Positions 4,771-33,861 of a DNA stretch of 34,739 nt are shown in pieces. The notes under the pieces are model-generated. The model saw only the letters and a list, made by a program, of their open reading frames with translations. It had not been told where the DNA came from and did no database searches. The position numbers and the translations under genes are program-made. The stretch comes from Gallionella sp. (GTDB taxonomy: Bacteria; Pseudomonadota; Gammaproteobacteria; Burkholderiales; Gallionellaceae). The stretch spans positions 1 through 34,739 of the forward strand of contig JAUYJO010000112.1 of NCBI GenBank assembly GCA_030700315.1. The letters are read 5' to 3'. Positions within the stretch are counted from its first letter, which is position 1. The number at the start of each line of letters is the position of its first letter.

Positions 4771-4810
4771 GCTAGCGACTGCGACAAAACAAAATTCTGC
4801 CACCCCGATT

Positions 4811-16550: not shown

Positions 16551-16583
16551 CGGCAACACTCAATCATTGATTACGAAGCGGCT

Positions 16584-16617: not shown

Positions 16618-16651
16618 CGGGAAAATATTTGCCAAGGTAGCTTGAAGCTCT

Positions 16652-17998: not shown

Positions 17999-18056
17999 TG
18001 CAACTCCTTGGTTGGTTGAAGATGCGTGCAGGTTAGTGAATACTTGTTGCTGTGCG

Positions 18057-18085: not shown

Positions 18086-18282
18086 CGCTATTTGGATAGC
18101 CGGTTAGCAGGGAATAGTGTGGCTCAGCTCACACGCTCCAGGGTTTGGCGATTGTTGAACCCGGCGCATGCAGCTTTCCTCGTAACCCTTTGCAGAGCAG
18201 CGCCCTGATACCGTGCAGTCGAGAGAGCAGGACCGATCTGCATTGAGCTTCAATACTCAAGTTTCATACAACTGAAATAATC

Positions 18283-18316
18283 CCTTCATCAAACTGCAAC
18301 AACTTAACATCATGAT
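18283..18316 (+). promoter_or_regulatory. Pho box and -10 of the phn operon
   Basis: CCTTCATCAAACTGCAAC (18283-18300) matches the Pho-box consensus at 13 of 18, with half-sites TTCA and TGCA 11 bp apart. CATGAT (18311-18316) follows after 10 bases as a possible -10. This would put the phn genes under PhoB, as in E. coli, with a leader of only about 25 nt before phnF. Confidence 0.62.
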
Positions 18317-18328
18317 GTGTCGCATTAC

Positions 18329-18340
18329 ATGTATAGACAT
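18329..18340 (+). promoter_or_regulatory. Probable PhnF operator
   Basis: ATGTATAGACAT is an inverted repeat of the form TGT-N-TA-N-ACA, the general operator shape of HutC/PhnF-type GntR regulators. It lies between the presumed transcription start and the phnF ATG at 18349, where a bound repressor would block the operon and phnF itself. No Shine-Dalgarno sequence is evident before phnF, which may keep its synthesis low. Confidence 0.6.
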
Positions 18341-18348
18341 CTATCGTC

Positions 18349-19074: not shown

Positions 19075-19115
19075 TTTTTCCTAACCGTTACTGAACCTGA
19101 CAGGAGTCTCACAAA

Positions 19116-19985
19116 ATGAAAGTAAATAAACTTATTCTCTCGGCGCTAGTCGGCGCGTCGTTGATTGGCGCAGCTGGTATAGCCAGTGCCCGCGAACTGG
19201 TGATGGGTTTGATCCCAGCCGAAAACAACGAAGAAATGATCAAGACATTCGAGCCGATGCGCGCCTATCTGGAAAAGAAGACTGGCCAGAAAGTGAAGGT
19301 GTTTACCGCAACCGACTATGCCGGGGTGATCGAGGCAATGAAGAAGAAGCGCGTTGACGTGGCGTGGTTCGGCCCGTTGTCCTACTACCTGGCTGAACAG
19401 GAAGCTGGTGCGGAAGCCTTCGCGGTGGGTATTCGTGAAGGCAGCGATTCGCACACCTATAAGAGCATCATCGTTGCGCCCTGCGGCAATGGTGTCAATA
19501 GCATTATGGATTTGAAGGGGAAAAGCGTCGCTTTCGTCGATCCCGCTTCCACATCGGGTGGTCTGATGCCAACTTACATGGTGAAGCAGGCGACCGGACA
19601 GATGCCGCAAGACTTCTTCGGGAAATTCACCTACGCGGGATCGCATGATGCGGCTGAATTGGCGGTTAAAAATAAAACGGTTGATGCTGCTGCGGACAAC
19701 GATATCACTTACCCGAAAATGTTGGCAAAAGGCCTGATTACCAAAGAAAGCAATTGCATCATTGCGGAATCCAGCCCGCTGCCCGGCTCGCCGCTGGTCT
19801 ATCGCGGTGATCTGCCAAAATCTTTGAAGGGGAAGATTCGCGATGCGATTCTGAACGCGCACAAGGAAATCAAGGTTGCCGGTTATGGCAATTTGAGCCA
19901 TTACGTTGCTATCGGTCCAAAAGATTATCAAGTCGTCCGGGACATGGTGAAAGAACTGGGTCTGAAGAAAGAGCAATTGAAGTAA
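19116..19985 (+). CDS. phnD: Periplasmic phosphonate-binding protein PhnD
   Basis: A 289-residue substrate-binding protein. A signal peptide (1-25, cut at ASA-RE) leads into a two-lobed fold starting LVMGLIPAENNEE. The phosphonate-holding loop VDPASTSGG (141-149) with its Ser-Thr-Ser cluster and the sequence YAGVIEAMKKKRVDVAWFGP (68-87) are characteristic of PhnD. It delivers phosphonates to PhnE1/PhnE2 and PhnC. AGGAG precedes the ATG by about eight bases. phnD lies before phnC here, the reverse of E. coli phnCDE. Confidence 0.95.
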   Translation: MKVNKLILSALVGASLIGAAGIASARELVMGLIPAENNEEMIKTFEPMRAYLEKKTGQKVKVFTATDYAGVIEAMKKKRVDVAWFGPLSYYLAEQEAGAEAFAVGIREGSDSHTYKSIIVAPCGNGVNSIMDLKGKSVAFVDPASTSGGLMPTYMVKQATGQMPQDFFGKFTYAGSHDAAELAVKNKTVDAAADNDITYPKMLAKGLITKESNCIIAESSPLPGSPLVYRGDLPKSLKGKIRDAILNAHKEIKVAGYGNLSHYVAIGPKDYQVVRDMVKELGLKKEQLK

Positions 19986-20039
19986 TTGCGGTGACGCGGT
20001 CGGTTGCTTGTGCACCGACCGCAATTATTTGGAGGAGAA

Positions 20040-20819
20040 ATGGCTCAAATCATCATCAAAGATGTCACCAAACGTTACGCCAATGGTTTCGAAGCGTTGA
20101 AAGGCGTGAGTGCTGAAATTGTAGCTGGTTCTTTCACTGTCATTCTCGGTCCATCGGGGGCGGGTAAGTCCACCTTGTTGCGTACCATCAACGGGCTGGA
20201 GACGCCGACGGCTGGCACGATCCAAGTCAGTGAACAAATAGTTAGCAAGGCTACGCTGCAACAAGTTCGCTCGCATGTCGCCATGGTGTTCCAACATTTC
20301 AATCTGGTTGATCGCTTGTCGGTCATGACCAATGTGCTGACCGGGCGCCTGTCTCACCGCTCGTGGCTCGGCAGTCTGTTGTATCTGTTCCAGCGCTGCG
20401 ATCTGGATATCGCCCACAATGCGCTGGTACGTGTGGGCCTCACCGAGAAAGCATGGAGCCGTGCGGATCGACTTTCTGGCGGGCAACAACAACGAGTAGG
20501 AATAGCGCGCGCCTTGGCGCAACAACCGCGCGTGATACTGGCAGACGAGCCGGTGGCAAGTCTGGATCCGGTGACCAGCGAAGAGATCATGGGTTTGCTG
20601 CGCGAGATATGTACGCGCGACGGCATCACCATCGTCGTCAACCTGCACCAGGTTGAACTGGCCAAGCGTTTCGCCGACCGTGTGATCGGACTTAACGAAG
20701 GTCTGGTTGTCTATGACGGTCCGGCCACGGGTCTGGATCGCGCAACATTGAGCCGCATCTATCGGCGCAACGGAGATCAAGTCGATGAACAGCTCGAGAC
20801 TATGCTGGCCTACGCCTAA
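20040..20819 (+). CDS. phnC: Phosphonate ABC transporter ATP-binding protein PhnC
   Basis: A 259-residue ABC ATPase driving phosphonate import. Walker A is GPSGAGKST (37-45), the signature LSGGQQQRV (145-153) and Walker B VILADEP (165-171), followed by the H-loop region NLHQVELAKRFADR. The ATG at 20040 has a perfect GGAGGAG just upstream, which decides against an earlier in-frame start at 20004. Its last 35 bp overlap phnE1. Confidence 0.95.
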   Translation: MAQIIIKDVTKRYANGFEALKGVSAEIVAGSFTVILGPSGAGKSTLLRTINGLETPTAGTIQVSEQIVSKATLQQVRSHVAMVFQHFNLVDRLSVMTNVLTGRLSHRSWLGSLLYLFQRCDLDIAHNALVRVGLTEKAWSRADRLSGGQQQRVGIARALAQQPRVILADEPVASLDPVTSEEIMGLLREICTRDGITIVVNLHQVELAKRFADRVIGLNEGLVVYDGPATGLDRATLSRIYRRNGDQVDEQLETMLAYA

Positions 20820-21582
20820 CGGCCTGCCGGCGCTGCTGCCGACTTCCGTATTCGCGGTCTGCATCCTGCTATTGGTGATCAGTGCTTCCGCGGTCGAACT
20901 CGATCTGTTGCGCTTGTTTAACGCGATACCGCGCATGTTCGAATTCGCCGGAAATCTGCTGGTGCTGCCCGATTGGGAGTACTTGCCTACGCTCGCCGTG
21001 AATATGCTGCAAACGCTGGAGATGACCTTCCTCGCCACCAGTATCGCACTGGTCATCAGCCTGCCTTTGGGGGTATTGGCGGCCAAGAATGCGAGTCCGC
21101 ATCCCGCCGTATTCCACGCGGCCCGCAATTCGTTGACGCTGATGCGCGCACTGCCGGAGCTGGTGTGGGCGCTGGTGTTCGTTTCGGCAGTGGGGTTAGG
21201 CCCGTTGCCGGGCATCATGGCGCTGTCTTTCGTGACGGTCGGTTTTATGGGTAAGTTCTTTGCCGAAAGTATCGAGGTGGTGGACCAACGCCAGATAGAA
21301 GGTGTGGTAGCGCATGGTGCCGGCTGGTTGCAGTTGCGCACCTTTGCCCATTTCCCGCAGGCATTCCCCGACTTCGTCGGCACTGTCATGTACATCCTCG
21401 ATCACAACCTGCGCGCCGCCGCCATTCTGGGCTTGGTCGGTGCAGGTGGCATTGGCTACGACCTGGTGATGGCGATGCGCATGTTCGATTACGACAGGCT
21501 GCTGCCCATCGCACTGTCTATCTATATGGTGGTGACTTTGCTCGATCGCGCATCCGATCAATTTCGCAGGAGGCTGATCTAA
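20785..21582 (+). CDS. phnE1: Phosphonate ABC transporter permease PhnE, first copy
   Basis: A 265-residue inner-membrane permease with about six hydrophobic spans and the binding-protein-dependent transport signature. Typical pieces are LMRALPELVWALVFVSAVGLG, the coupling loop around EGVVAHGAGWLQLRTF, and AAAILGLVGAGGIGYDL. It pairs with the next gene to form the channel. It starts inside phnC, with GGAG upstream of the ATG, and its stop codon directly abuts the phnE2 start, which implies coupled translation. Confidence 0.93.
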   Translation: MNSSRLCWPTPNGLPALLPTSVFAVCILLLVISASAVELDLLRLFNAIPRMFEFAGNLLVLPDWEYLPTLAVNMLQTLEMTFLATSIALVISLPLGVLAAKNASPHPAVFHAARNSLTLMRALPELVWALVFVSAVGLGPLPGIMALSFVTVGFMGKFFAESIEVVDQRQIEGVVAHGAGWLQLRTFAHFPQAFPDFVGTVMYILDHNLRAAAILGLVGAGGIGYDLVMAMRMFDYDRLLPIALSIYMVVTLLDRASDQFRRRLI

Positions 21583-22377
21583 ATGTCAGCGCAAACTGTA
21601 TTGCGTCCCCCGTTGCCGAAGAAGCCGTTCAATCCGACGCCGGTGTGGTTGTCGGCATGGCTGGTTTTGCTGTGGCTGATCGTGTTCGATCTGGATTTGT
21701 CATTTGAAACGTTGCTGTACGGTGTGCAGGACATATTCGAGTATTTCAGCCGCTACAGCAGACCGAATTTTGCAGACTTATCTAGATATGTAGAACTCTT
21801 GGCGCAGACCTTGTCCACCGCACTGTGGGGTAGCGCACTGGCCTTGGTTGTGGCCGTGTTACTGGCGCCGTTCGCCGCGCGCAATCTGTCACCCAATCCC
21901 GCAACTTATCGCATCGCCCGTGAACTATTGAACTTCATGCGAGCCATGCCCGATCTGCTGCTGGCCTTGATCTTCGTTGCGGCACTGGGCTTGGGGCCGT
22001 TGCCAGGTGCGTTGGCGCTCGGTATTCACACTGCGGGTTTTCTCGGCAAGTTCTTTGCGGAAAGTCTGGAACGCGTGGATGGCGGTGTGTATGAAGCGGT
22101 CGCCGCCACCGGCGCTTCGCGCGTGCAAGTAGTGATGTATGCGGGCTGGCCGTCGATTCAGCGCGAAGCGTTGGGTTACGTGCTCTATATCTTTGATCGC
22201 AATGTGCGCATGGCCGCCGTGCTGGGGCTGGTCGGTGCGGGCGGCATCGGCCTGGCGCTGCACGACACTTTGCGCATGTTCAATTACGACCAATCGGCAG
22301 CACTGATCATCGTCATTCTCATCACCATTCTGTTCATCGATTACCTATCAACCTGGCTGCGAGGAAAACTGAATTAA
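21583..22377 (+). CDS. phnE2: Phosphonate ABC transporter permease PhnE, second copy
   Basis: A 264-residue permease related to phnE1: it shares LLNFMRAMPDLLLALIFVAAL, the FLGKFFAESLERVDGG coupling segment and MAAVLGLVGAGGIGLAL. Two tandem phnE genes, giving a heterodimeric channel, are common outside the enterics. The N-terminal 20 residues are cytoplasmic and Pro-rich. It runs with no gap into phnG (start at 22378). Confidence 0.93.
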   Translation: MSAQTVLRPPLPKKPFNPTPVWLSAWLVLLWLIVFDLDLSFETLLYGVQDIFEYFSRYSRPNFADLSRYVELLAQTLSTALWGSALALVVAVLLAPFAARNLSPNPATYRIARELLNFMRAMPDLLLALIFVAALGLGPLPGALALGIHTAGFLGKFFAESLERVDGGVYEAVAATGASRVQVVMYAGWPSIQREALGYVLYIFDRNVRMAAVLGLVGAGGIGLALHDTLRMFNYDQSAALIIVILITILFIDYLSTWLRGKLN

Positions 22378-22842
22378 ATGAACATCCCTAGAGAAGATTG
22401 GCCAAGTGCGCTGTGCGCGCTGCATGCCAACGAGGTGAAACAGACGGTCGCGGCGCTGCTGCAAAACATCGAGGTGCATGATGTGGCCTTGCCGCAGGCA
22501 GGGCTGGGTTTGCTGAGCTTGCGCGACGGCGCATTGCATGAATCGTTCTTCATCGGCGAGATGCCGGTGGCGCGTGCCGAAGTTCTTGTGCGCACCCCAG
22601 CGGGAGATGAAGTCAGGGGTGGGGCGGTGATCATCGACGACCGCGCGCAGTTTGCCCGCACCATCGCCATTCTGGATGCGGTACTGGCGGGGAAATTATC
22701 CGGTTGGGAGCAGGCTGCCAGTCTGGTGCAACAGGGCATCGCCGTGCGCAAACAAAAGGACAGCGAACGCAAAAAACTGCTGGCGGTGACCCGTGTGGAT
22801 TTTTCGCTATTGGGGCAAGAAGATGACGAAGATGCAGAGTGA
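22378..22842 (+). CDS. phnG: C-P lyase core subunit PhnG
   Basis: A 154-residue subunit of the PhnGHIJ core complex; E. coli PhnG is 150 long. Family features include the SFFIGEMPVARAEVLV strand pair, the Gly-rich GDEVRGGAVIIDDRAQFARTIA turn and a C-terminal basic helix (RKQKDSERKKLLAVTRVDF) leading to an acidic tail. With PhnI it helps swap the purine of ATP for methylphosphonate. It starts right after the phnE2 stop and overlaps phnH by 20 bp. Confidence 0.92.
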   Translation: MNIPREDWPSALCALHANEVKQTVAALLQNIEVHDVALPQAGLGLLSLRDGALHESFFIGEMPVARAEVLVRTPAGDEVRGGAVIIDDRAQFARTIAILDAVLAGKLSGWEQAASLVQQGIAVRKQKDSERKKLLAVTRVDFSLLGQEDDEDAE

Positions 22843-23413
22843 TACAGCGATAAACGCAGCCGATATCTGGTTGCCGCAGATGCAGCAACAACTGTTTCGT
22901 GGACTACTGAATGCATACAGCTATCCGGGACGCATCACAATTTGCGCAGAGCAGAATACACCAGCATGGCTGGCGATATTGACCGCGCTGGTGGATGGAG
23001 AAACGACGTTAGCCGATCCGCAGCAATTGTTGTCAGAAGCATGGTGGCCGAAACTGGAAGCGCGTCGCGCGCCGCCTGAACGGGCCGCATTCATTTTGCT
23101 GGATGGCAGCCTTGCGCCTGAACTACTGCCCAACCTCGGAACATTGGAAGCGCCGGAAACGGGCGCAACTTTGTTGCTGCGTGTGGAATCATTGCACAGC
23201 AATGAGACAGGCGATGTGCGTTTGCATTTGAGCGGGCCCGGCATCCGGCAGCGCGTTGCCATCAGTGTGAACGGACTGCATCCGGCATGGATCACATCGC
23301 GCAATGATTGGGTAGCCAACTTTCCGCTCGGTGTGGAGATGGTGCTGTGCGACGCGCATCGCTTTGTGGCGCTGCCGCGCACGACGAAGATTGTCATTGG
23401 AGAGGCAGCATGA
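22823..23413 (+). CDS. phnH: C-P lyase core subunit PhnH
   Basis: A 196-residue subunit. Conserved segments are QQLFRGLLNAYSYPGRI, TALVDGETTLAD, EAPETGATLLLRVESL, LSGPGIRQRVAISVNGL and FPLGVEMVLCDAHRFVALPR, the usual PhnH series. In the core complex PhnH packs on PhnJ. I chose the ATG at 22823, which has GGGG about seven bases upstream; one at 22832 would also serve, and an upstream GTG at 22793 lies too far inside phnG. Its stop overlaps the phnI start (ATGA). Confidence 0.93.
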   Translation: MTKMQSDTAINAADIWLPQMQQQLFRGLLNAYSYPGRITICAEQNTPAWLAILTALVDGETTLADPQQLLSEAWWPKLEARRAPPERAAFILLDGSLAPELLPNLGTLEAPETGATLLLRVESLHSNETGDVRLHLSGPGIRQRVAISVNGLHPAWITSRNDWVANFPLGVEMVLCDAHRFVALPRTTKIVIGEAA

Positions 23414-24522
23414 GTTACGTTGCGATCAAGGGCGGCAAGGCCGCGATCGACGGCGCCGCTGCCGCGACTGAATATCTGCGCTGCAAGGGTGCGTCGGAGG
23501 AGCCGCTGACGCTCTCGGTGATCGAAGAGCAGCTGCGTCTGCTTACTTCGCGTGTGGTTTCCGAAGGTGGCTTGTATCACCCGCGTTTGGCTGCGCTCGC
23601 GCTCAAACAATTTCAGGGTGACACACTGGAAGCGGCGTTTGCGTTGCGTGCGTATCGTTCGACCAAACCGAGGTTGCTGGAATCGCCGTTGCAGGCCACG
23701 AGCAATATGCGTTGCATTCGACGCATCTCGTCGGCATTCAAGGAGGTGCCCGGCGGCCAGTACTTGGGGGCGACTTACGATTACGCTTTGCGTTTGTTGC
23801 AACTCGATCTGGCGCATGAGGATCCTGCTGCATTCCAGGCCGTGGCGAAGAATTTTATGCGTGATACCACCGAGACGGAATTGCCCGATTCCTTTCCAAA
23901 GGTGATCGACGCATTGCGCGCCGAAGGCTTGTTGCCGCCTGTCGCGGCAAAACGTGACGTGCCATTCGACATCACCCGCGAACCCTTGGTGTTTCCGGTG
24001 CCGCGTTCTGCCGCACTGGCGACGATGGCGCGCGCCGAGACGGGATCGCTGCTGGCGATGGCGTATTCCAACATGCGCGGTTATGGCGATGTCCATCCCA
24101 CGGTGGCCGAATTGCGCGTGGGTTACCTGCCGGTGATGTTGCCGCATCCGGTGACCGGCGAGCTGATGGAAGCGGGCGAGGTGCTCATCACCGAATGCGA
24201 GGTGGTGGCGATGTATGAAAGCGGCAATGCCGACGACCTGCCCACCTTCACCCTGGGCTATGGCGCATGCTTCGGCCACAACGAAGTCAAAGCCATCAGC
24301 ATGGCGATCCTGGATCGGGCATTGCAAAAGGGCATGCGTGACGGTCCCGGCAATCCCTCGGAAGACCCCGAGTTCGTGCTGCTGCATGTTGACGGAGTCG
24401 ATTCGATGGGCTTCGCTTCGCATTACAAGATGCCGCACTACGTCACCTTCCAGTCCGATATGGACAGGCTGCGCACCACGCAGGGAAAGATGCGTAACAA
24501 GAATGCGGAGGAGGCAGCATGA
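23410..24522 (+). CDS. phnI: C-P lyase core subunit PhnI
   Basis: A 370-residue subunit, slightly longer than the E. coli protein. PhnI is the nucleosidase-like part that, with PhnG, PhnH and PhnL, makes ribose-1-phosphonate-5-triphosphate from ATP and a phosphonate. Recognisable stretches are MSYVAIKGGKAAIDGAAAAT, LPVMLPHPVTGELMEAGEVL, and CFGHNEVKAISMAILDRAL. The last includes the His-Asn-Glu triad typical of the family. GAGG precedes the ATG at 23410. The start overlaps phnH and the stop overlaps phnJ, both by ATGA. Confidence 0.95.
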   Translation: MSYVAIKGGKAAIDGAAAATEYLRCKGASEEPLTLSVIEEQLRLLTSRVVSEGGLYHPRLAALALKQFQGDTLEAAFALRAYRSTKPRLLESPLQATSNMRCIRRISSAFKEVPGGQYLGATYDYALRLLQLDLAHEDPAAFQAVAKNFMRDTTETELPDSFPKVIDALRAEGLLPPVAAKRDVPFDITREPLVFPVPRSAALATMARAETGSLLAMAYSNMRGYGDVHPTVAELRVGYLPVMLPHPVTGELMEAGEVLITECEVVAMYESGNADDLPTFTLGYGACFGHNEVKAISMAILDRALQKGMRDGPGNPSEDPEFVLLHVDGVDSMGFASHYKMPHYVTFQSDMDRLRTTQGKMRNKNAEEAA

Positions 24523-25412
24523 ACACGCATTACGAACTGCCGCTGGAAGATGCCGGCTACTCCTTCGGCTTCATGGATGAGTATGCCAAGAAAGAAGTGC
24601 GCCGCTGCATCCTGAAAGCGATTTCCATTCCCGGTTATCAAACGCCATACGCATCGCGCGAGATGCCGATGGGGCGTGGCTTTGGAACGGGCGGGTTGCA
24701 GCTCACGTTATCGCTGATCGGGGCGGACGATACCTTGAAGGTGATCGACCAAGGCTCTGACGATTCAGTCAATGCTGTGAACTTGCGCCAATTCGTGCAG
24801 CTCACTTGCCCCGGTGTCGAGGTGACAGAGAGGACCGAAGAGGCGACGCTGATCCAATCGCGCCACCGCATTCCGGAAAAACCGCTGACGGAAGCACAGA
24901 TATTGGTATTGCAAGTGCCCTATCCCGATGCCTTGGTTGTGGTTGAATCATCGGAAGCGCGACGCAAGACCATGCATGGCGAAGCCGACTATTCGCGTCT
25001 GCTAGTCAAGTTGTATGAGGATGTCGTGCGCTTCGACGAAATCACCATCTCGCATCGTTATCCGACGCGCATCAATGGGCACTATGTGATCGATCCTTCG
25101 CCGATCCCGCGTTGGGATGTGCCCAAGCTGCATAAATCGCCCGCGCTCATCCTGCTCGGCGCGGGACGTGAAAAGAAAATATATGCCGTGCCGCCGTACA
25201 CGCCGGCCGAGCCGCTGGTGTTCGATGACATCGCATTCCGCGTGGAAGATTTTCGCGATACGGACGGACAACGCTGTGCATGCCGCTGCTGCGGATCGAC
25301 CGTGAGTTTTCTGGATGAACTCATCGATGACCAGGGCGTGGTCACCCACCAATGCTCGGACTCGGCGTATTGCGAAGATCAGCAGCAAATCAATTCTAGG
25401 AACAAGGCATGA
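24519..25412 (+). CDS. phnJ: C-P lyase radical enzyme PhnJ
   Basis: A 297-residue radical SAM-type enzyme that breaks the carbon-phosphorus bond of ribose-1-phosphonate-5-phosphate. The cluster cysteines are Cys255-x2-Cys258 and Cys279, followed by Cys285, which corresponds to the thiyl-radical cysteine of E. coli. Cys253 and Cys257 are extra neighbours in the CACRCC run. The Gly-rich GRGFGTGGLQ (53-61) near the N-terminus corresponds to the E. coli Gly32 region. It is a PhnGHIJ subunit and is coupled to phnI and phnK by ATGA overlaps. Confidence 0.96.
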   Translation: MNTHYELPLEDAGYSFGFMDEYAKKEVRRCILKAISIPGYQTPYASREMPMGRGFGTGGLQLTLSLIGADDTLKVIDQGSDDSVNAVNLRQFVQLTCPGVEVTERTEEATLIQSRHRIPEKPLTEAQILVLQVPYPDALVVVESSEARRKTMHGEADYSRLLVKLYEDVVRFDEITISHRYPTRINGHYVIDPSPIPRWDVPKLHKSPALILLGAGREKKIYAVPPYTPAEPLVFDDIAFRVEDFRDTDGQRCACRCCGSTVSFLDELIDDQGVVTHQCSDSAYCEDQQQINSRNKA

Positions 25413-26242
25413 GCAACAAGATACTGGAAGTGCGCGGACTATCGCGTATCCACGGCACAGGCTGCCCCTTGTGCATCCAAAGCACCGGGCCGGAGTGCGA
25501 TACCAACATCTGCCGCCATTGCGGCAGTGTGGTGGCCGCGCATGACGTGAGCTTCGAACTGTATCGCGGCGAGATACTCGGCATCATCGGCGAATCCGGC
25601 AGCGGAAAATCAAGCACGGTCAAGATGCTCTATTTCGACGATGTGCCAACAGCAGGCGAGGCAACATTTTTTGACGGAAACGACCGGCATGAATTGTTCG
25701 GCCTCAATGCCGCCCGGCAACGCAGCATGCGCAACAAGCGATTCGGCATGGTGTACCAGAACCCTCATCTCGGCTTGAATTTTCAAGTCTCTGCCGGCGG
25801 CAACATCGCGGAACGTCTGCTGATGAGCGACATGAAGAATTACGGCGAGATACGCCGTCGCGCTGGTGATCTCCTGGCGCGCACCGAAGTGTCGCGCGGG
25901 CGCATGGATCAAAATCCAAAGACATTTTCCGGTGGGATGCAGCAACGTGTACAGATTGCCAAGGCGCTTGCGACACAGCCACCACTATTGTTTCTGGACG
26001 AAGTGACTACCGGTTTGGACCTGTCCGTGCAGGCGGCCATCCTCGATCTGATTCTTGAAATTCAGCACGAGCTGGGTACCGCGATGATCGTGGTGACGCA
26101 CGACCTCGGTGTGATCCGTCTGCTGGCGGGGCGCACGCTGGTGATGAAACATGGTCGAGTGATCGAAGCCGGACTGACCGATCAAATTCTTGAAGACCCG
26201 CAGCACGCGTATACCCAGCGGCTGGTGGCTTCCGCATTGTGA
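25409..26242 (+). CDS. phnK: C-P lyase ABC-type subunit PhnK, Cys-rich variant
   Basis: A 277-residue ABC-fold ATPase that docks on the C-P lyase core rather than on a membrane channel. Walker A is GESGSGKSS (61-69), the signature FSGGMQQRV and Walker B LLFLDEV, with the H-loop VVTHDLGVIRLLAG. Compared with the 252-residue E. coli protein there is an extra N-terminal segment with five cysteines, Cys19, Cys22, Cys30, Cys35 and Cys38 (CPLC...CDTNICRHC), which looks like a metal-binding knuckle. It is coupled to phnJ by ATGA; phnL follows after 7 bp. Confidence 0.94.
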   Translation: MSNKILEVRGLSRIHGTGCPLCIQSTGPECDTNICRHCGSVVAAHDVSFELYRGEILGIIGESGSGKSSTVKMLYFDDVPTAGEATFFDGNDRHELFGLNAARQRSMRNKRFGMVYQNPHLGLNFQVSAGGNIAERLLMSDMKNYGEIRRRAGDLLARTEVSRGRMDQNPKTFSGGMQQRVQIAKALATQPPLLFLDEVTTGLDLSVQAAILDLILEIQHELGTAMIVVTHDLGVIRLLAGRTLVMKHGRVIEAGLTDQILEDPQHAYTQRLVASAL

Positions 26243-26249
26243 GAAGAAT

Positions 26250-26972
26250 ATGAACCAAGCCATATTGACCATCGAAGACTATGCAAAAACTTTTCATTTG
26301 CATGAGCGCAACAAGCGGATTCCGTCTGCATCGCATGTCAATTTAAGCGTTTATCCGGGACGATTGACTGCGCTGGTCGGCCCAACAGGGGCAGGCAAGT
26401 CGTCGGTGTTGAAAGGAGTCTACCGGACTTATCTGCCTGATGCGGGGCGCATCCTGTTTCGCACCCATGCCGGAAATGTCGTTGATCTGGTACGTGCGAG
26501 CGAACATCAGGTGCTTGAGTTGCGCAAACAGGAGATCGGATTCGTCACCCAGTTTTTGCATTGCCTGCCACGCAAATCCGCTCTGGATGTGGTGGCCGAA
26601 CCCTTGGTTACGCGTGGGGTGGATGGTGATGAAGCGCATGCACGAGCCGGGCAGATTCTGCAGCAACTGGCCGTGCCGAGGCACTTATGGAACGTACCCC
26701 CTGCCACTTTTTCAGGCGGGGAGAAGCAGCGCGTGAATCTGGCGCGCGGCTTGATCGCACAGCCGCGACTGTTGCTGTTGGATGAACCGACTGCGAGCCT
26801 TGATCCGGCCACCACAGAACGCGTGATCGAACATATCCAATCGATCAAAGCAACGGGAATCGCCATGCTCGCTATTTTTCACCACCCCGACCTCGTCCGG
26901 CGTCTCGCAGATGATGTCGTTGAACTGGCGCCGCCATTAGCCGCAGTCGAAACCATCGAGGAAATAGCATGA
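26250..26972 (+). CDS. phnL: C-P lyase ABC-type subunit PhnL
   Basis: A 240-residue ABC-fold ATPase with Walker A GPTGAGKSS (44-52), signature FSGGEKQRV (154-162), Walker B LLLLDEP (174-180) and H-loop IFHHPDLVRRLAD. PhnL works with PhnG, PhnH and PhnI in the first step of the pathway and binds atop PhnK in the complex. I chose the ATG at 26250, with GAGAAG upstream, over an in-frame start at 26190 that lies deep inside phnK. It overlaps phnM by ATGA. Confidence 0.94.
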   Translation: MNQAILTIEDYAKTFHLHERNKRIPSASHVNLSVYPGRLTALVGPTGAGKSSVLKGVYRTYLPDAGRILFRTHAGNVVDLVRASEHQVLELRKQEIGFVTQFLHCLPRKSALDVVAEPLVTRGVDGDEAHARAGQILQQLAVPRHLWNVPPATFSGGEKQRVNLARGLIAQPRLLLLDEPTASLDPATTERVIEHIQSIKATGIAMLAIFHHPDLVRRLADDVVELAPPLAAVETIEEIA

Positions 26973-28129
26973 AGAATCATTTTTACCTGACCGGCGCACA
27001 AGTGGTGCTGGAAAACGAAACCCTAAAAGAAGCCGGTGTGCTGATAGCGGATGGTCATATCGTTGCAATCGATCCGGTCGGTTGCGGGGAGGCAAAAGAA
27101 GTCAATCTTCGCGGTCATATTCTGATGCCTGGCATGATAGACCTGCATTGCGATGCATTGGAGAAAGAAGCCGAGCCGCGCCCCGGTGTGCATTTCCCAT
27201 TCGATTTCGCCTGTGCGCAGGCAGACAAGCGCAATGCCGCTGCGGGTATCACCACCGTATTCCATGCGTTGTCATTTGCCAATGCAGAGTTGGGGGTGCG
27301 TAACAACAATACTGCCGCAGAGCTGGCGCGTGCGGTGCATGCATGGCAGGCACACGCACTGGTGGATAACCGGGTGCATGCACGTTATGAGATCACCGAC
27401 CCGACCGCACCGGCCATCTTGCACGAGCTGCTGGCTAACGACGAAATTCACCTGATGTCCTTCATGGATCACACGCCCGGACAAGGGCAATTCAAGGATA
27501 CAGATGCCTATCGCAACTATCTGGCACGAACCTACAAAAAAGAAGCTGCCGAGATCGAAACGCTGCTTGCAGACAAACTTGCGCAAGGCGATGGTGCAGT
27601 TGCGCGTATGGAGCGGTTGGCGAAAGCGGCGCGTGAGTTGGGTATTCCACTCGCCAGCCACGATGATGATCGACCCGAGAAGATTGGTATCGTAACGGCA
27701 TTGGGTGTTGCTGTATCAGAGTTCCCCGTCAATCTTGAAACTGCCCAGGCCGCCAGAGCAGCCGGGCTGGCAACACTCTACGGCGCGCCAAACATCTTGC
27801 GCGGCAAGTCACAGTCAGGATCGATGCGCGCGCTCGATGCGGTGATAGAAGGCGTGGCCGATTGTTTGTGCGGCGATTATTCTCCCGCCGCTTTGTTGCC
27901 TGCTGTGATGCAATTGCCCAATCTGGCGGGAATCCCTCTGCATGAGGCAATAGCTTTGGTAACCCGCAACCCCGCTCGTGCAGCAGGCCTTCACGACCGT
28001 GGGGTAATTGCCGCAGGAAAACGCGCCGATTTGCTGGCAGTGCGTAATCTTGGAAAGTTGCCTCAAGCGGCGCGCGTGTGGTCGTCAGGCATAACGGTGA
28101 TGGCGCTCGCTTTTGATCATGGTGAATGA
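26969..28129 (+). CDS. phnM: Ribose 1-methylphosphonate 5-triphosphate diphosphatase PhnM
   Basis: A 386-residue amidohydrolase-fold enzyme that removes pyrophosphate from the triphosphate made by PhnGHIL. Metal-site markers are DLHCD (58-62; His60, Asp62) after the strand LMPGMI, then LASHDDDRPEK, and the late motif NLAGIPLHEAIALVTRNPAR. The C-terminal strand KRADLLAVR is usual for amidohydrolases. It is coupled at both ends: ATGA with phnL, and its stop overlaps the ribosome site of phnN. Confidence 0.95.
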   Translation: MKNHFYLTGAQVVLENETLKEAGVLIADGHIVAIDPVGCGEAKEVNLRGHILMPGMIDLHCDALEKEAEPRPGVHFPFDFACAQADKRNAAAGITTVFHALSFANAELGVRNNNTAAELARAVHAWQAHALVDNRVHARYEITDPTAPAILHELLANDEIHLMSFMDHTPGQGQFKDTDAYRNYLARTYKKEAAEIETLLADKLAQGDGAVARMERLAKAARELGIPLASHDDDRPEKIGIVTALGVAVSEFPVNLETAQAARAAGLATLYGAPNILRGKSQSGSMRALDAVIEGVADCLCGDYSPAALLPAVMQLPNLAGIPLHEAIALVTRNPARAAGLHDRGVIAAGKRADLLAVRNLGKLPQAARVWSSGITVMALAFDHGE

Positions 28130-28130
28130 C

Positions 28131-28700
28131 ATGAGCGGGATTCTGCTTTATGTGATCGGTGCATCGGGTAGCGGCAAAGACAGTTTGATGCGTTATGCAA
28201 GGGAGTCCCTTGCCGGATATTCAGGTGTGGTATTCGCCCATCGCTACATCACTCGCCCTCATGACGCCGGGGGAGAGAATCATGTGGCGCTGAGTGAGGC
28301 CGAGTTTGATGCAAGGCTGGCGCGTAATCTGTTTTCATTACATTGGCATAGCCATGGTATGCGCTACGGCATCGGTTGTGAGCTTAATCAATGGTTGGCA
28401 AAGGGTTTGGCTGCGGTCGTTAACGGCTCTCGTGCCTATTTGGCCGAGGCTTCCAGAAACTATCCCGAACTCACGCCTGTATTGATTGAAGTCTCTCCTG
28501 ATGTCTTGCGCTCTCGACTGCATGCGCGTGGACGAGAAAGCGAATCCGGCATCGGATCCAGACTGGTGCGAGCTGAGAAATTCAAGGAGTTGCATCATCC
28601 AAAATTGCTTCGATTCTCCAATGACGCGGCATTGGAAGAAACAGGCCCTGCATTCGTGGAGCTTATCCGTTCACAAACACAGATGATTACATGCGGTTGA
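28131..28700 (+). CDS. phnN: Ribose 1,5-bisphosphate phosphokinase PhnN
   Basis: A 189-residue guanylate-kinase-fold enzyme making PRPP from ribose 1,5-bisphosphate at the end of the pathway. The P-loop is GASGSGKDS (10-18); HRYITRP and HWHSHGMRYGIG are typical PhnN segments for substrate binding. I chose the ATG at 28131 because GGTGA lies five bases before it; an ATG at 28119 in frame has no such site. It overlaps phnP by 10 bp. Confidence 0.93.
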   Translation: MSGILLYVIGASGSGKDSLMRYARESLAGYSGVVFAHRYITRPHDAGGENHVALSEAEFDARLARNLFSLHWHSHGMRYGIGCELNQWLAKGLAAVVNGSRAYLAEASRNYPELTPVLIEVSPDVLRSRLHARGRESESGIGSRLVRAEKFKELHHPKLLRFSNDAALEETGPAFVELIRSQTQMITCG

Positions 28701-29452
28701 CTTTTCTTGGTACGGGTGCGGCGGGCGGTGTGCCGCTTTGGGGGTGTGGTTGTGTGGTATGTGCCAGCGCCCGTATAGATGTCAGCTATGCGCGCCGCCC
28801 GAACTGTGCGGTGGTTGAGGCTGGTGAGGTGCGCTTGTTATTGGATGCGGGAGTGATGGATGTCGCCGAACGATTCCCGCCAGGAGAACTGTTGGCAATT
28901 TTGATAACACATTTCCACACTGACCATGTTCAAGGGTTGTTCCACTGGCGCTGGGGAGTGGGAGAGCTGGATGTTTTTGCACCACATGATGCAGAAGGCT
29001 GTGCTGATTTGTACAAATATCCGGGGCCATTGAGGTTCAGGCATCTCTCCAAATTCGAAACGTTCAATGTGAGTGATGTTCACATCACACCTGTACCACT
29101 GGTGCATTCAAAACCAACCTTGGGATACTGCATCGAGCACGATGGAATACGAGTAGCTTATTTGACAGACAGCAGTGAACTCCCCCCTGCAACCGCGACA
29201 TTCTTGACGGAATGGAAACCTCACACAATCTGTCTGGGCTGTGCTTATCCGCCCGGAATGGAAGGGCGTCGTAATCACTTCGATCTGCCTGAGGCTATTG
29301 CATTAAGCAACGACTATCCTTCCAGCAGAATTGTATTGATGCATATCAGCCACCACCTGGATGAGTGGCTAAGGGCTCATCCGGACGCGCTGCCGGAGCG
29401 CATGGTGTTGGGGCACGATAATGAGACGCTCGATTTCTCGGGAGTACCATGA
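28691..29452 (+). CDS. phnP: Cyclic ribose phosphate phosphodiesterase PhnP
   Basis: A 253-residue metallo-beta-lactamase-fold enzyme that opens 5-phosphoribosyl 1,2-cyclic phosphate, the product of PhnJ, to ribose 1,5-bisphosphate. The metal site motif THFHTDHVQG has His74, His76, Asp78 and His79. Cys19, Cys21 and Cys24 (GCGCVVC) form the structural zinc site known from E. coli PhnP. HISHHLDEWL and GHDNETLDF supply later ligands. Length matches E. coli (252). Its stop overlaps the start of the transporter gene by ATGA. Confidence 0.95.
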   Translation: MRLTFLGTGAAGGVPLWGCGCVVCASARIDVSYARRPNCAVVEAGEVRLLLDAGVMDVAERFPPGELLAILITHFHTDHVQGLFHWRWGVGELDVFAPHDAEGCADLYKYPGPLRFRHLSKFETFNVSDVHITPVPLVHSKPTLGYCIEHDGIRVAYLTDSSELPPATATFLTEWKPHTICLGCAYPPGMEGRRNHFDLPEAIALSNDYPSSRIVLMHISHHLDEWLRAHPDALPERMVLGHDNETLDFSGVP

Positions 29453-30321
29453 CACCGCTGTCGGCCATCGGGCTATCTGTTCTGCTGCATGTGTCCTGGA
29501 ATCTATTGACACGGCGCACGCCCAGTGAAGCGAATTTCCTGTGGTGGATCGTCGGTCTGTATGTGCTGGTGTTCGCTCCATTCACCTTGCCGGATTTTGT
29601 TCATGCCGCAGAACAGTCACCCGTGCTTTATATCTGCGCTGCCATCAGTGGCACGACCAATGGCTTGTACTTTTTGGCATTGAGAAGGGCTTATTCTATG
29701 GCGCCAGCCAGTGTCGTCTACCCTATAGTACGTAGCTCACCGCTCTTCATTGCAATTGTTGAAACGTTGTTCTTTGGGCTCAGTTTCCCTTTGCTATCGT
29801 GGTTTGCCATCATGGTTGCAGCGGTCGGTCTGTGGCTGATCGCAACCAGCGCGCATGATAGTACCTCACGTCTCAGCCGCGCGTGGCCCTATGCCTTATT
29901 TGCTGCCTTCATGACCGCCTTGTATAGCATGAGCGATAAAGTTGCAGCTTCAAATATGCAAGGCCTTAATGCCGCACTCGGATATGTATGCGTGAATTTT
30001 GCAATCAGTTGGGTTTTTCTCAGCCTGGAACAAAAAATGTCGGATCGTCGTTGGGCGCCAGGAACAATGCCAAGTATCCTTTCCCTAATCATTGGTACAT
30101 TTGGCGTCGGAACGGCTTACGCGCTGGTGATTTATTCGATGCGATGGCTGCCCGCCGCGTATGCGGTAGCACTCACAAACGCCGGCATTGTTTTAAGCGT
30201 ACTGTTAGGTGTGGCTTGGCTGAAGGAGTATGAAGGATGGCGACAGCGTATCACCGGGGCATGTTTGGTTGTGGCGGGCTTGATAGTCGTGAGTAATGGG
30301 ATATTGGTTCAGCGCGTGTAG
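29449..30321 (+). CDS. DMT/EamA-family transporter at the end of the phn operon
   Basis: A 290-residue membrane protein with about ten hydrophobic spans arranged as two EamA repeats: SVLLHVSWNLLTRR with SMAPASVVYPIVRSSPLFIA in the first, and GTAYALVIYSMRWLPAAYAVA with NAGIVLSVLLGVAWL in the second. DMT proteins export or import small metabolites; the substrate here cannot be read off. The ATGA overlap with phnP makes it part of the C-P lyase operon, so a phosphonate, a dephosphonated alcohol or a ribose intermediate are candidate cargoes. Oddity: its last codons and stop (from about 30306) lie in a fragment copied from olsB, so the C-terminus may have been rewritten. Confidence 0.85.
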   Translation: MTPLSAIGLSVLLHVSWNLLTRRTPSEANFLWWIVGLYVLVFAPFTLPDFVHAAEQSPVLYICAAISGTTNGLYFLALRRAYSMAPASVVYPIVRSSPLFIAIVETLFFGLSFPLLSWFAIMVAAVGLWLIATSAHDSTSRLSRAWPYALFAAFMTALYSMSDKVAASNMQGLNAALGYVCVNFAISWVFLSLEQKMSDRRWAPGTMPSILSLIIGTFGVGTAYALVIYSMRWLPAAYAVALTNAGIVLSVLLGVAWLKEYEGWRQRITGACLVVAGLIVVSNGILVQRV

Positions 30322-30354
30322 CGGCAACGGGTTACGGGGGAATATGCTGTATTC
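30306..30354 (-). pseudogene. Relic of a second olsB gene
   Basis: These 49 bp align without gaps to 17416-17464 inside olsB, with five differences, all transitions. On the minus strand it reads EYSIFPRNPLPLHALN against EYSVFPRNPLPLHALN in OlsB; four of the five changes are silent and one is Val to Ile. That pattern means the copy diverged while still coding. Nothing of the rest of the gene is left here; the phoX gene starts its transcript from an olsB-like promoter further right. Confidence 0.82.
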
Positions 30355-30395
30355 ATGTTGCTGCTCTACGATAGTTGCTTGCCCAATAAAGAAAT

Positions 30396-30421
30396 GTGGC
30401 AGCCGAATGAATGGCTGCCAC
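30396..30421 (-). terminator. Probable terminator of phoX
   Basis: A perfect 9-bp stem, gtggcagcc (30396-30404) with ggctgccac (30413-30421), and an 8-nt loop. On the minus strand it is followed by ATTTCTTTATT, a moderately T-rich tract. It lies 28 bp after the phoX stop. It may also limit read-through from the phn operon in the other direction. Confidence 0.68.
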
Positions 30422-30448
30422 AACCACGACAATGGATGAAGAAGCAGG

Positions 30449-32800
30449 TTAGCGCATAGCTGGCAAGCCGCCAAGATAGCCGACCTCCGCCTTGTTTCTA
30501 TTGATCAGCGGCAGGATTCTGGCATGTACTATCGGGTTGGTGCCGTTCAAGTCGCCAGCATGCTGATAGTTGCTCATGATGTAGGCATGGCCTTTCATGT
30601 TGTCCACTACTTGCAGGCCAGTTGATTCCGCACCCATGGGTAAGGAGAGAATGCGCACCAGCTTACCGGTGTCGACGTGATAGGCCCACAGGTAATTATT
30701 GACGTGCCTGGACGAGTCTTCTCCGATGAACAATACTCGCATCCGCTCGGAGAACCATAAATTATCCGGGCTGGCGATCTTGTTCAAGTCCGAGGTATTC
30801 CCGTCTGCATCTGCAACAGCGATATCTGCTCCGATGACAAGTGCTGACATACTGCTTGGGACAAATTCGCTATTGATGGCACTCCCGGTGCTATCGACCT
30901 GACCAGACATTAGCGCTAATTCATAGACTGCGCCCGAGTTGTTTTTCTTCAGGCGAATGTCGTTAACTGGCTCGGTTGCGGATATGGCAACGCTCTCCAT
31001 TCCTTTTGTCATACGTGTCATCGCAGCATAAGCCTTGTTGTTTCTGGCGTTGTAGGCGACACCTTCATATTTCTCGAATTCGGTCGTGGCACCCATAAGG
31101 GCTGCGTAACGGCGCGTTTCAAGAAAAGCTGCCAGAGTGGTGATCGGAATTCCAGCGAAATTGCCAGCCTTCAATTGCAAGTATTCATTTGTTGCGATTT
31201 CATGCCCAGCCTTGATCTGAGTAAATCCGACTGCAACCGTCGGAGAGGTCGTAAACAAATCGTTGAACGTGACTCCGGCAGCTACTGCCGTCTTGATTTC
31301 TGCGTGGGTGGTGTGCCCCAGCTTGACCCAAGTCAAATTTGCTGCACCGCCATCCGTGGCATCGGGCGATGTTTGTACCCATTTTGCGGCGTACAAAGCG
31401 CCTGCGGACAGATCGCCCGGATTATCGGCAACAAACATGGTGAGCGAGGTGTAAGTGCCATCATCCCCTTGAATGGCCGTGCGGGAATCAGCAAAGAACT
31501 GCACCTTCTCGCGAGCAATACGTCCCAGCGTGTACCACTTTTCTACGGTAGTGCTGCCATTGGACGATATGGTGATTTCCGGTACCCGGCCATAGTGGTA
31601 TGGGGATGCGACCGTTTCCCCGTAGGTAGTGCGCATTCCTGACATACGGGCTGTGTATTCCTGGGATAGACAGGAGCCTCCAGCTACAGCCGCATGGGTT
31701 GCATCGACTTCGCAGCGGGCATCGGGTTCATACTCTTCAGAACCCAAATGTGTATTCCAGGGAGAGCGTGAACCGGCGCAAGGTATCCACAGGCCATTCA
31801 CTCCTGAAAAACTGATCGGATTGATGGAGGAAACAGTAAATTTTCCATCCGCGCTATTCTGGCCAAGTTTTGCCAGCGTCATGGTCATCGGTAATTTGCC
31901 GTAAAAACTCGTGCCATTACTGTCCAGATTTTGGTATTCAAAATGTGTGACAAGGTACGGTGTGCCACCGATGTCTATCAGTGAGTTTGCGTCCGGAGTC
32001 TCGGGAACATAGGGCTGGCCGTTGACGTCTTTGATAACAGCGCCTGATTTATTGAGGAGCACAGCGGCCGGGAGGCCGGATACTGTCTTGTTGATATCGG
32101 TGTTATTGAACAAATTTATAAAGGACAGCGGAAAGTTTTTTACGGTACCGTCCGCATAAGTTACATTTGCCGTAGATGTGGTGTAGGTAATTGCACGATT
32201 TGCATCAGACAAACCAGTGATGTCGGTTGGGGTAAATTCCACCGATTTCACTTGGGCCGGTGCCGACAGCAGATGCACTGCAATATCTCTGAGCGGCTTC
32301 GCGGCCAAGCCAGCAGTAGCCAGCACTGTGCTTGCTTGGGTCAAGGAGCCAACTGTCGCAGCCGTTGCAAATTTAGAAGCGTTCGCGCTTACGTCGATAT
32401 GCGTGTCGGTAGGCAATGCACCAGCGGCAGTTTGCATGACCTGAGCGATGGCGAGCGACTTTTGATCGGTTTCATCAGTTACGCCAGCAATATCTTTGGG
32501 GCGAACGACGCTGTTGCCGCCCTCTTTACCTAGAGATGTATCGGACATATTGACCGAGCCCAAAGTGGCACTGCCAATCTTGAAAGCGACTGTGTCACCC
32601 GCAGTATATTTGAATTCACCGTTAGTTCCGGTGCTGCCCGAAGTTCCGCTGCTGGTTGAATAGGACACCCCTTTGACATAAGAGTCAGAAAGGGTTCCCG
32701 TTAATTGTGATTGAGGAACACTGCCAGAACTGCTGCCACCGCTACAGCCTCCAATGCACAAAGCCGCAGATATTGCGACAGAAACTGCTTTCAGATTCAT
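30449..32800 (-). CDS. phoX: PhoX-type phosphatase, lipoprotein form
   Basis: A 783-residue secreted phosphatase-like protein. The signal ends in IGGC (Cys19), so it is probably a lipoprotein; the twin-arginine motif usual for PhoX is absent. Residues about 40-85 look like a small beta domain (GEFKYTAGDTVAFKIGSATL). The PhoX-like part (from about 400) shows ETRRYAALMGATTEFEKYEG, SPDNLWFSERMRVLFIGED and a close in GAESTGLQVV...IMSNYQHAGD, parallel to the classical family motifs. PhoX enzymes use Ca and Fe to free phosphate from esters. I chose the ATG at 32800 with GGAGAAGGA upstream. It is monocistronic, with a Pho-box promoter and terminator. The family is likely; activity is unproven because the catalytic ligands are only partly recognisable by eye. 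Confidence 0.78.
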   Translation of the reverse strand: MNLKAVSVAISAALCIGGCSGGSSSGSVPQSQLTGTLSDSYVKGVSYSTSSGTSGSTGTNGEFKYTAGDTVAFKIGSATLGSVNMSDTSLGKEGGNSVVRPKDIAGVTDETDQKSLAIAQVMQTAAGALPTDTHIDVSANASKFATAATVGSLTQASTVLATAGLAAKPLRDIAVHLLSAPAQVKSVEFTPTDITGLSDANRAITYTTSTANVTYADGTVKNFPLSFINLFNNTDINKTVSGLPAAVLLNKSGAVIKDVNGQPYVPETPDANSLIDIGGTPYLVTHFEYQNLDSNGTSFYGKLPMTMTLAKLGQNSADGKFTVSSINPISFSGVNGLWIPCAGSRSPWNTHLGSEEYEPDARCEVDATHAAVAGGSCLSQEYTARMSGMRTTYGETVASPYHYGRVPEITISSNGSTTVEKWYTLGRIAREKVQFFADSRTAIQGDDGTYTSLTMFVADNPGDLSAGALYAAKWVQTSPDATDGGAANLTWVKLGHTTHAEIKTAVAAGVTFNDLFTTSPTVAVGFTQIKAGHEIATNEYLQLKAGNFAGIPITTLAAFLETRRYAALMGATTEFEKYEGVAYNARNNKAYAAMTRMTKGMESVAISATEPVNDIRLKKNNSGAVYELALMSGQVDSTGSAINSEFVPSSMSALVIGADIAVADADGNTSDLNKIASPDNLWFSERMRVLFIGEDSSRHVNNYLWAYHVDTGKLVRILSLPMGAESTGLQVVDNMKGHAYIMSNYQHAGDLNGTNPIVHARILPLINRNKAEVGYLGGLPAMR

Positions 32801-32858
32801 TTCCTTCTCCACGTTGGTTAAGATGCATGTCAGGTTATTGAACCCCTGTTGCAGCGCG

Positions 32859-32887
32859 ATGACGGGAATATGAAGGGTTTGTGAAAT
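32859..32887 (-). promoter_or_regulatory. Triple Pho half-site array of phoX (duplicate of the olsB promoter)
   Basis: The same three 7-mers at 11-bp steps as at 18057-18085. The identical block is 32856-32891 (36 bp, no mismatch), and weaker similarity continues to about 32814 through the 5' leader (ttggttaagatgcatg against ttggttgaagatgcgtg near olsB). The rest of the 338-bp gap to the second phoU (about 32892-33069) shows only isolated resemblance to the olsB upstream region. Confidence 0.7.
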
Positions 32888-33069
32888 CGCTTCCTGGGTG
32901 GCTGATGCCGAAGCTGAGCGAGTAACAGCACTAAGCGAATTACGCCGAGAGTAGCGTCAGACTTCACGCTCCAACGGGAGAAAGTCCGCACGGAGCTTGC
33001 CTTGATCTTCACGTACTTATTGAATATGCCTATGTTGCTCTTGATCATCATCTAACGTCTCGTGTTGGC

Positions 33070-33103
33070 GCGTAACAATTTCGTCATGAATGATGGGTAG
33101 TCT
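33070..33103 (+). promoter_or_regulatory. Possible Pho box of the second phoU
   Basis: GCGTAACAATTTCGTCAT (33070-33087) has CGTAA and CGTCA half-sites 11 bp apart, 11 of 18 consensus matches. TAGTCT (33098-33103) follows after 10 bases but is a poor -10. It resembles the pstS site in its CGTAAC half. Confidence 0.5.
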
Positions 33104-33138
33104 GGAGGCTGAATCAATTTGTGTCGGGAGAGAATCGG

Positions 33139-33861
33139 ATGGGCAATAGCAGTCATACCTTGGTTCAGTTCGATGTCGAACTCGATGGGGTGCGTGAACA
33201 AGTGATGCTGATGGGCAGTTTGGTGGAAAGCCAGATACGGCTGGCCATAGAAGCGCTGGTCAACAACGATGTCGCCTTGATGGAGCGCGTCATTGAAGGC
33301 GACCGCCGCGTGAACGGCATGGAAGTCGCTATCGACGAAAAGTGCGTCCAGATCATCGCTTGCCGCCAACCGGCAGCAAACGACCTGCGCATGGTGATGA
33401 CGGTTATCAAGACCATCACGGACATGGAACGCATCGGCGATGAGGCGAAAAAAATTGCGTGGATGGGAAAGCGTCTGTCACAGCGGGAGCACCCCAGTCT
33501 GCCACGCTATACCGAAATTCTGCACGCCGCCAATCTGGTGCTCGACATGCTGCATCAATCACTGAGCTCTTTCGCACGCCTGGATATATCCGGCGTCACA
33601 CAAGTAATACGTCAGGATGAGCTGGTAGACAATGAGTTCCGCGCCATTTTGCGCGCCATGGTCATTTTGATGATGGAAAATCCTCGTATCATATCAAGCG
33701 CGCTGGAGATATTGTTCATCGCTAAATCTGTTGAGCGCATGGGTGACCATGTACAGAACATAGCCGAATACATGGTCTACCTGATCAAGGGGCACAATGC
33801 GCGCCATATCAGCGTAGAGGAGATCGAGCGCGAATTGCAGCAAGCGGATTTACAGAAATAG
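33139..33861 (+). CDS. phoU2: Second PhoU-family protein
   Basis: A 240-residue two-repeat PhoU protein. The metal-binding motifs are DMERIGDEAKKIAWM and SVERMGDHVQNIAEYMVYLI, and the chain ends in an acidic helix ISVEEIERELQQADLQK. It differs strongly from the Pst-linked phoU at 6517 and is closer in look to E. coli PhoU. I chose the ATG at 33139, which has GGGAGA eight bases upstream, over a GTG at 33121. It is divergent from phoX and followed by no pst genes. The likely role is Pho-regulon damping or control of another phosphate carrier; which of the two copies signals to PhoR is unknown. Confidence 0.93.
   Translation: MGNSSHTLVQFDVELDGVREQVMLMGSLVESQIRLAIEALVNNDVALMERVIEGDRRVNGMEVAIDEKCVQIIACRQPAANDLRMVMTVIKTITDMERIGDEAKKIAWMGKRLSQREHPSLPRYTEILHAANLVLDMLHQSLSSFARLDISGVTQVIRQDELVDNEFRAILRAMVILMMENPRIISSALEILFIAKSVERMGDHVQNIAEYMVYLIKGHNARHISVEEIERELQQADLQK

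What the first reader, a model, noticed from the sequence alone, without database searches (positions are those of the whole stretch)
30306..30354. Relic of a second olsB gene between the transporter gene and phoX
Seen: 49 bp match the inside of olsB with five transitions, four of them silent and one Val to Ile. The copy thus diverged as a working gene before most of it was lost. With the olsB-like promoter in front of phoX, the simplest reading is that phoX replaced the body of a second olsB, keeping its promoter and a scrap of its coding sequence.
Basis: partly seen in the sequence, partly recalled or inferred. Interest (0 to 1): 0.68.

Follow-up and report, generated by a model that had tools for sequence, protein, structure and literature searches.

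The report
Scar of a lost olsB gene
A 53-base scrap next to a phosphatase gene appears to be what is left of a lipid-synthesis gene (olsB) whose place and starvation-type promoter the phosphatase gene now occupies; some relatives still carry olsB in that spot, so the scar records how one gene can take over the switch of another.

Summary
In detail: 30302-30354 matches olsB codons 179-195, in order and sense. In a search of 76 genus genomes, all 18 non-self matches with E<0.005 lie in olsB. The reading is mostly right, and relatives support it better than the strip does. In G003 and G067 phoU is divergent from olsB across one intergenic region; the window's phoU-phoX region aligns to it over ~390 bp, so phoX begins where olsB begins there. 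Seven other close phoX genes have a different leader. Against this empty site the window holds a 14.7-kb insert (phn, strip, phoX) between two copies of the olsB promoter. Corrections: the assembly has two intact olsB genes (window and contig C35), and the strip is no nearer to either than they are to each other, so it stems from a further copy; the silent-change argument is weak (P 0.07-0.08); whether a full olsB stood here or the scrap came with the insert is open. Wider pattern: 7 of 41 detected copies of this promoter no longer precede a near-full-length olsB; phoX, a STAS gene, a lipid-type gene set or hemerythrin follow instead.

The parts
30302..30354 (-). olsB scrap: codons 179-195 of olsB, collinear with the promoter at 32813-32906; its other strand gives the last residues and stop codon of the transporter gene
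30449..32812 (-). phoX-type alkaline phosphatase gene occupying the olsB slot
   Evidence: Pfam PF05787 above cut-off; close homologues in 7 other family genomes with other leaders
32813..33144 (.). phoU-phoX intergenic region, aligning to the phoU-olsB intergenic region of G003 and G067; includes the olsB leader copy P2
   Evidence: 76% over about 390 bp; 81% over about 1068 bp with phoU
32859..32887 (-). Pho-box-like core of P2: three TTCA/GTCA units 11 bp apart, as in P1
   Evidence: pattern match only; no binding shown
30395..30422 (-). terminator-like hairpin between the phoX stop codon and the scrap
   Evidence: the region scan found 2 such sites against a mean of 3.6 in shuffles, so the scan alone is no evidence
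29449..30321 (+). phn-associated EamA-type transporter gene; its 3' end runs into the scrap
17999..18107 (-). olsB leader P1, the other copy of the direct repeat that flanks the insert
17198..17998 (-). intact olsB (called W17 here)
18104..32812 (.). 14.7-kb insert relative to the empty site in G067: phn cluster, scrap, phoX
33145..33861 (+). phoU, divergent from phoX here and from olsB in G003, G067 and G070
15867..17164 (-). hemerythrin gene and phoB, the other flank of the empty site

Best explanation
The strip is the scar of a lost olsB gene. Shown: in two relatives the chromosome reads phoU (divergent) - promoter - olsB - hemerythrin genes or remains - phoB; in the window a phn cluster, the scrap and phoX lie between two copies of the olsB promoter, and phoX starts, within about 13 bases, where olsB starts at the phoU side. 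Inferred: a further olsB copy arose at this locus, most likely through recombination in the olsB/promoter repeat when the phn cluster came in; the phoX coding region then took the place of the 5' part of that copy and the phn end cut off its 3' part, leaving about 17 codons. Function (inferred): the scrap does nothing beyond giving the transporter gene its last few residues and stop; what matters is that phoX took over a PhoB-type promoter, so that phosphate starvation should induce phoX from the former olsB switch.
For: Empty site: G067 3905-4952 = window 33875-32813 (81%) and G067 4860-6300 = window 18103-16661 (82%), overlapping by 93 bp at the promoter; G003 gives the same picture. G070 also has phoU divergent from olsB. 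All 18 non-self matches to the strip with E<0.005 lie in olsB (coordinates compared by eye). The seven other close phoX genes (72-75% aa) have neither this leader nor the strip next to them. Nine full-length and one fragmentary phn transporter loci of relatives end without the strip. Precedent: G059 has promoter, olsB N-terminal scrap, metallophosphoesterase-dgkA-glycosyltransferase, promoter, intact olsB; G053 has a similar layout with a STAS gene, its scrap being of borderline score.
Against: Only 53 bases survive, with no further olsB trace on either side, so a full gene cannot be shown. The silent:replacement count is compatible with no selection. The arrangement is seen in one draft assembly (243 contigs, 5.43% contamination estimate). 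No expression data. At a looser cut-off the Pho-box pattern is no more frequent in the window than in shuffles (7 sites against a mean of 7.35).
Confidence: 0.8

Rival explanations
1. Filler DNA: the 53 bases were copied from an olsB gene by template switching during the break repair that joined the phn end to phoX; no gene ever stood there.
For: The scrap is short and sits exactly at a junction; both flanks are unrelated to olsB. Its orientation would fit by chance one time in two.
Against: phoX independently sits in the olsB slot behind the olsB leader, so a lost olsB there is expected anyway. A recent copy of W17 or C35 should be nearer to one of them than 6 of 53 differences, and 16 of 17 codons are ones used by working genes.
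Confidence: 0.1
2. Imported scar: phn, scrap and phoX came as one block from another species in which phoX had already replaced olsB, and recombined into the phoU-olsB locus through the shared promoter.
For: The insert is flanked by a ~93-bp direct repeat of the promoter, as a single crossover would leave; scrap, W17 and C35 are equally far apart (6 of 53 each). One family genome of another genus, G129, has both a close phoX (73%) and a close phn transporter (73%).
Against: In G129 the two lie on different contigs (C192, C134), and the 12.5 kb held around its phoX show no phn gene. In the lists of 158 family genomes (phoX at E<=1e-40 in 16, transporter at E<=1e-60 in 17) the only other genome with both is G116, whose phoX is distant (42%) and on another contig.
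Confidence: 0.25
3. The strip is a functional element, for example an antisense stretch in the 3' end of the phn transcript that pairs with olsB mRNA.
For: On the + strand it is antisense to olsB and lies at the end of the phn transporter gene; a terminator-like hairpin lies between phoX and the strip on the phoX strand.
Against: Absent beside phn in the related phn loci examined (10 loci, one a fragment); 6 mismatches to each intact olsB; no Rfam match at gathering threshold.
Confidence: 0.03

Closest known systems
Gene remnants left by gene replacement at a syntenic locus
   Same: A coding scrap in the right order and sense between a retained promoter and a new neighbour, with the intact gene at the same place in relatives.
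   Different: The new gene (phoX) is itself of a phosphate-stress type and sits behind the old gene's promoter; olsB losses behind this promoter recur in the genus.
PhoB/PhoR-controlled olsB of ornithine-lipid producers (A. baumannii, PMC11828411: passages seen)
   Same: There olsB has a predicted Pho box and is induced under phosphate limitation; here the olsB leader holds a Pho-box-like repeat.
   Different: Here one copy of that leader now leads to phoX; induction has not been tested in this organism.
PlcP-glycosyltransferase lipid-remodelling clusters (PMC4796936: passages seen)
   Same: Such clusters pair plcP with a glycosyltransferase and may carry Pho boxes; G059, G003 and G067 have a metallophosphoesterase-dgkA-glycosyltransferase set at or near the olsB locus.
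   Different: That the metallophosphoesterase is PlcP is my inference; its best NCBIfam matches are to LpxH, below cut-off.

Membership tests
olsB remnant | Similarity to olsB well above chance | tested here: met
   E 3e-14 and 4e-13 in the own genome; score 81 against shuffle maximum 29
olsB remnant | Similarity to olsB only, not to a dispersed repeat | tested here: met
   18 of 18 non-self matches with E<0.005 lie in olsB (2 own genome, 16 in other genomes); 10 weaker matches of 18-25 bases are scattered and taken as chance; in some genomes only 10 first-look candidates were scored
olsB remnant | Collinear with an olsB promoter at a locus where relatives keep olsB | tested here: met
olsB remnant | Past purifying selection on the copy | tested here: inconclusive
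   4 of 5 silent, P 0.07-0.08; 16 of 17 codons found in working genes
olsB remnant | More than one piece of the lost gene left | tested here: not met
   no trace above shuffles beside the strip or at the phoX start
OlsB (for the intact gene W17) | NCBIfam OlsB model above curated cut-off | tested here: not met
   178.7 bits against cut-off 350, while Pfam Acetyltransf_5 is far above its cut-off. The name rests on the best match and on the olsA-like gene next to the C35 copy, whose OlsA match (137 against 300) is also below cut-off
PhoX alkaline phosphatase | Pfam PF05787 | tested here: met
   57.5 bits against cut-off 24
Pho-box promoter | Two 7-bp direct repeats spaced as in a Pho box | tested here: met
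   With TCA demanded in both units, P1 and P2 are the only sites with 11 of 14 matches in the window; 1 of 100 mononucleotide shuffles had two such sites. Definition from passages of PMC4971064; the CTGTCAT consensus is recalled
Pho-box promoter | PhoB binding and induction by phosphate starvation | not testable with these tools
   needs bench work

The most novel reading that the evidence does not exclude
The olsB promoter-leader in Gallionella is a recurrent docking slot: genes useful in phosphate starvation repeatedly come in next to a duplicated promoter, one olsB copy decays, and the newcomer inherits a ready-made PhoB switch. The three genomes with two promoter copies at one locus (G000, G053, G059) each show one copy leading to an intact olsB and the other to olsB remains (borderline in G053) plus new genes; in all, 7 of 41 detected promoter copies no longer precede a near-full-length olsB.
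Probability: 0.35. Interest if true: 0.6.

Novelty: new member of a known kind. Interest (0 to 1): 0.42.

Why it matters
It is a readable case of how a gene may enter a regulon: not by evolving a promoter but by taking the place of a gene that had one. Relatives give the empty site, so the step can be bracketed and tested, and the genus offers further cases at the same promoter.

Tried and rejected
Tried without result: further olsB pieces around the strip; Rfam families in 30200-33200 (none at gathering threshold); a donor genome with phn and phoX side by side; papers with Gallionella and olsB (0) and with Gallionella, alkaline phosphatase and phosphonate (1, off topic by its listing); a search on promoter capture and gene replacement showed nothing relevant in the 10 of 391 papers listed.

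Considered and set aside: contamination as the source of the second intact olsB. C35 carries the only close olsA match of the assembly (the other match, on C57, is 32% identical), and W17 and C35 are sisters in the tree with 100/99 support, so I take C35 as the same organism; a co-binned close strain is not excluded. A recent duplication of W17 as source of the strip: the strip is no nearer to W17 than to C35, G039 or G053, and G059 is nearest with 5 of 53. I first thought that phoX might have come from behind olsB as in G043, but then the scrap would lie in front of phoX, not behind it. A draft of this report said that no other genome has both phn and a close phoX; one search showed that G129 has both, on different contigs, and the text was mended. 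A draft also called the G053 scrap clear; one search showed it to be borderline, and G022 and G027 to have no scrap above shuffles.

Full report
Setting. The window is one whole contig (C119) of a 3.5-Mb, 243-contig assembly. Records found with the phn transporter are titled Gallionella sp., Gallionellales and others; five of them have the contig lengths of G004-group relatives G064, G065, G057, G056 (titled Gallionella sp.) and G006 (titled Gallionellales) of the window's genus, so I call the genus Gallionella by that route. From left to right the part that matters reads: phoB (NCBIfam TIGR02154 above cut-off), hemerythrin, olsB (all -), the phn cluster from phnF to a transporter (+), the strip, phoX (-), phoU (+), a STAS gene (+).

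The observation. The strip and the promoter match are both real. The best extent of the strip is 30302-30354. It corresponds to codons 179-195 of olsB. Its other strand is read as the last residues and the stop codon of the transporter: nine full-length transporters of relatives have 285-287 residues and other tails, the window's has 290.

The assembly has a second intact olsB on contig C35, behind the only close olsA match, and a C-terminal scrap at the end of contig C36 (score 114 against shuffle maximum 29). W17 (window) and C35 are sisters, 92.6% identical, with 1 difference in the first 83 bases and up to 13 per 83 further on, which looks like partial gene conversion. In the strip segment W17, C35 and strip differ from each other by 6 bases each; G059 is nearest to the strip with 5. 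The strip is therefore probably from a further copy, not a recent copy of either gene. Of 17 codons, 16 occur at the same position in at least one of 32 olsB genes compared; Ile (ATA) occurs in none. The 32 are 30 genes with a fetched locus plus the two own copies; one search found olsB matches in 56 of 76 genomes, so the rest were not compared.

The empty site. In G067 and G003 the neighbourhood exists without phn and phoX: phoU and olsB are divergent over one intergenic region, and hemerythrin genes (G067) or remains (G003) and phoB follow olsB. Alignment to G067 gives 3905-4952 = window 33875-32813 (81%, 1068 bp) and 4860-6300 = window 18103-16661 (82%, 1444 bp); the 93-bp overlap is the olsB promoter, present twice in the window. 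G003 gives the same picture with an 84-bp overlap. G070 also has phoU divergent from olsB. So the insert is about 18104-32812 and phoX starts where olsB starts in these relatives. This is stronger evidence for replacement at this place than the strip alone.

Where phoX comes from. In 158 family genomes, 16 (own included) have a match at E<=1e-40, 8 of them (own included) at 72% identity or more. In the other seven the DNA similarity stays within the coding region (it starts about 110-120 bases inside the gene), none has the olsB leader or the strip next to phoX, and by eye several of the leaders resemble each other. In G043 phoX is the fourth gene behind olsB, after dgkA, a glycosyltransferase and a gene that I read as PAP2-like without a family search. 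G129, of another genus, has both a close phoX and a close phn transporter, but on different contigs and without phn in the 12.5 kb held around phoX.

The promoter. The shared leader has three TTCA/GTCA units 11 bp apart. With TCA demanded in both units, P1 and P2 are the only two sites in the window that reach 11 of 14 matches to two recalled CTGTCAT units, and 1 of 100 mononucleotide shuffles gave two such sites; at 8 of 14 the window has 7 sites against a shuffle mean of 7.35, so weaker sites mean nothing. [quoted passage not shown] PMC11828411 (passages) reports olsB with a predicted Pho box and induction under phosphate limitation in A. baumannii. That P2 drives phoX under phosphate starvation is inferred.

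A recurrent pattern. The promoter was sought in 76 genus genomes: 42 matches in 38 genomes at E<=0.01; one 19-base match (G055) was set aside, leaving 41 in 37. Diverged leaders are missed at this setting: several genomes with olsB show no promoter match. By comparing coordinates (by eye), 34 of the 41 stand before a near-full-length olsB match (stops listed inside some of these matches were not checked) and 7 do not: the window's P2 (phoX); G059 (olsB N-terminal scrap, score 69 against shuffle maximum 35, then metallophosphoesterase-dgkA-glycosyltransferase); G053 (borderline scrap, 30 against 29, then a STAS gene; phoU divergent); and G002, G007, G022, G027, where hemerythrin comes next (G002 and G007 with olsB internal deletions, G022 and G027 with no scrap above shuffles).

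What remains open. Whether phoX replaced a complete olsB here, or scrap, phoX and phn came in together, cannot be told from 53 bases. The selection argument is weak: 18 or 19 of 48 possible transitions are silent, so four or more of five are silent with P 0.07-0.08, and part of the difference lies on the branch of the working gene. The filler-DNA reading is not excluded. The arrangement rests on one assembly.

Literature. Searches found no paper with Gallionella and olsB and one off-topic listing for Gallionella with alkaline phosphatase and phosphonate. This covers only the open-licence library searched. No paper was read whole; listings or passages only.

Noticed in passing
L038 3540-3760 (G002) and L121 5262-5500 (G007): olsB with internal deletions that keep the reading frame: N-terminal and C-terminal parts fused into short open frames of about 60-80 residues behind the promoter.
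   Followed up: partly
L179 12991-13273 (own contig C36) and L005 1-170 (C35): C36 ends in an olsB C-terminal scrap followed by a hemerythrin start; its last 141 bases are the reverse complement of the first 141 of C35, a likely repeat break in the assembly.
   Followed up: partly
L040 2837-2873 (G003): A further olsB C-terminal scrap beside hemerythrin remains.
   Followed up: partly
window 17198-17998 and L005 189-986: The two intact olsB genes are nearly identical at the 5' end and clearly diverged towards the 3' end, as if partly converted.
   Followed up: partly
window 4593-4763, 6298-6468, 34686-34739: A repeat with CCTTCCCCC...GGGGGAAGG arms, one partial copy at the contig end.
   Followed up: no
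L072 4040-9687 (G043): olsB, dgkA, glycosyltransferase, a PAP2-like gene (my reading) and phoX in one direction behind one olsB promoter.
   Followed up: partly
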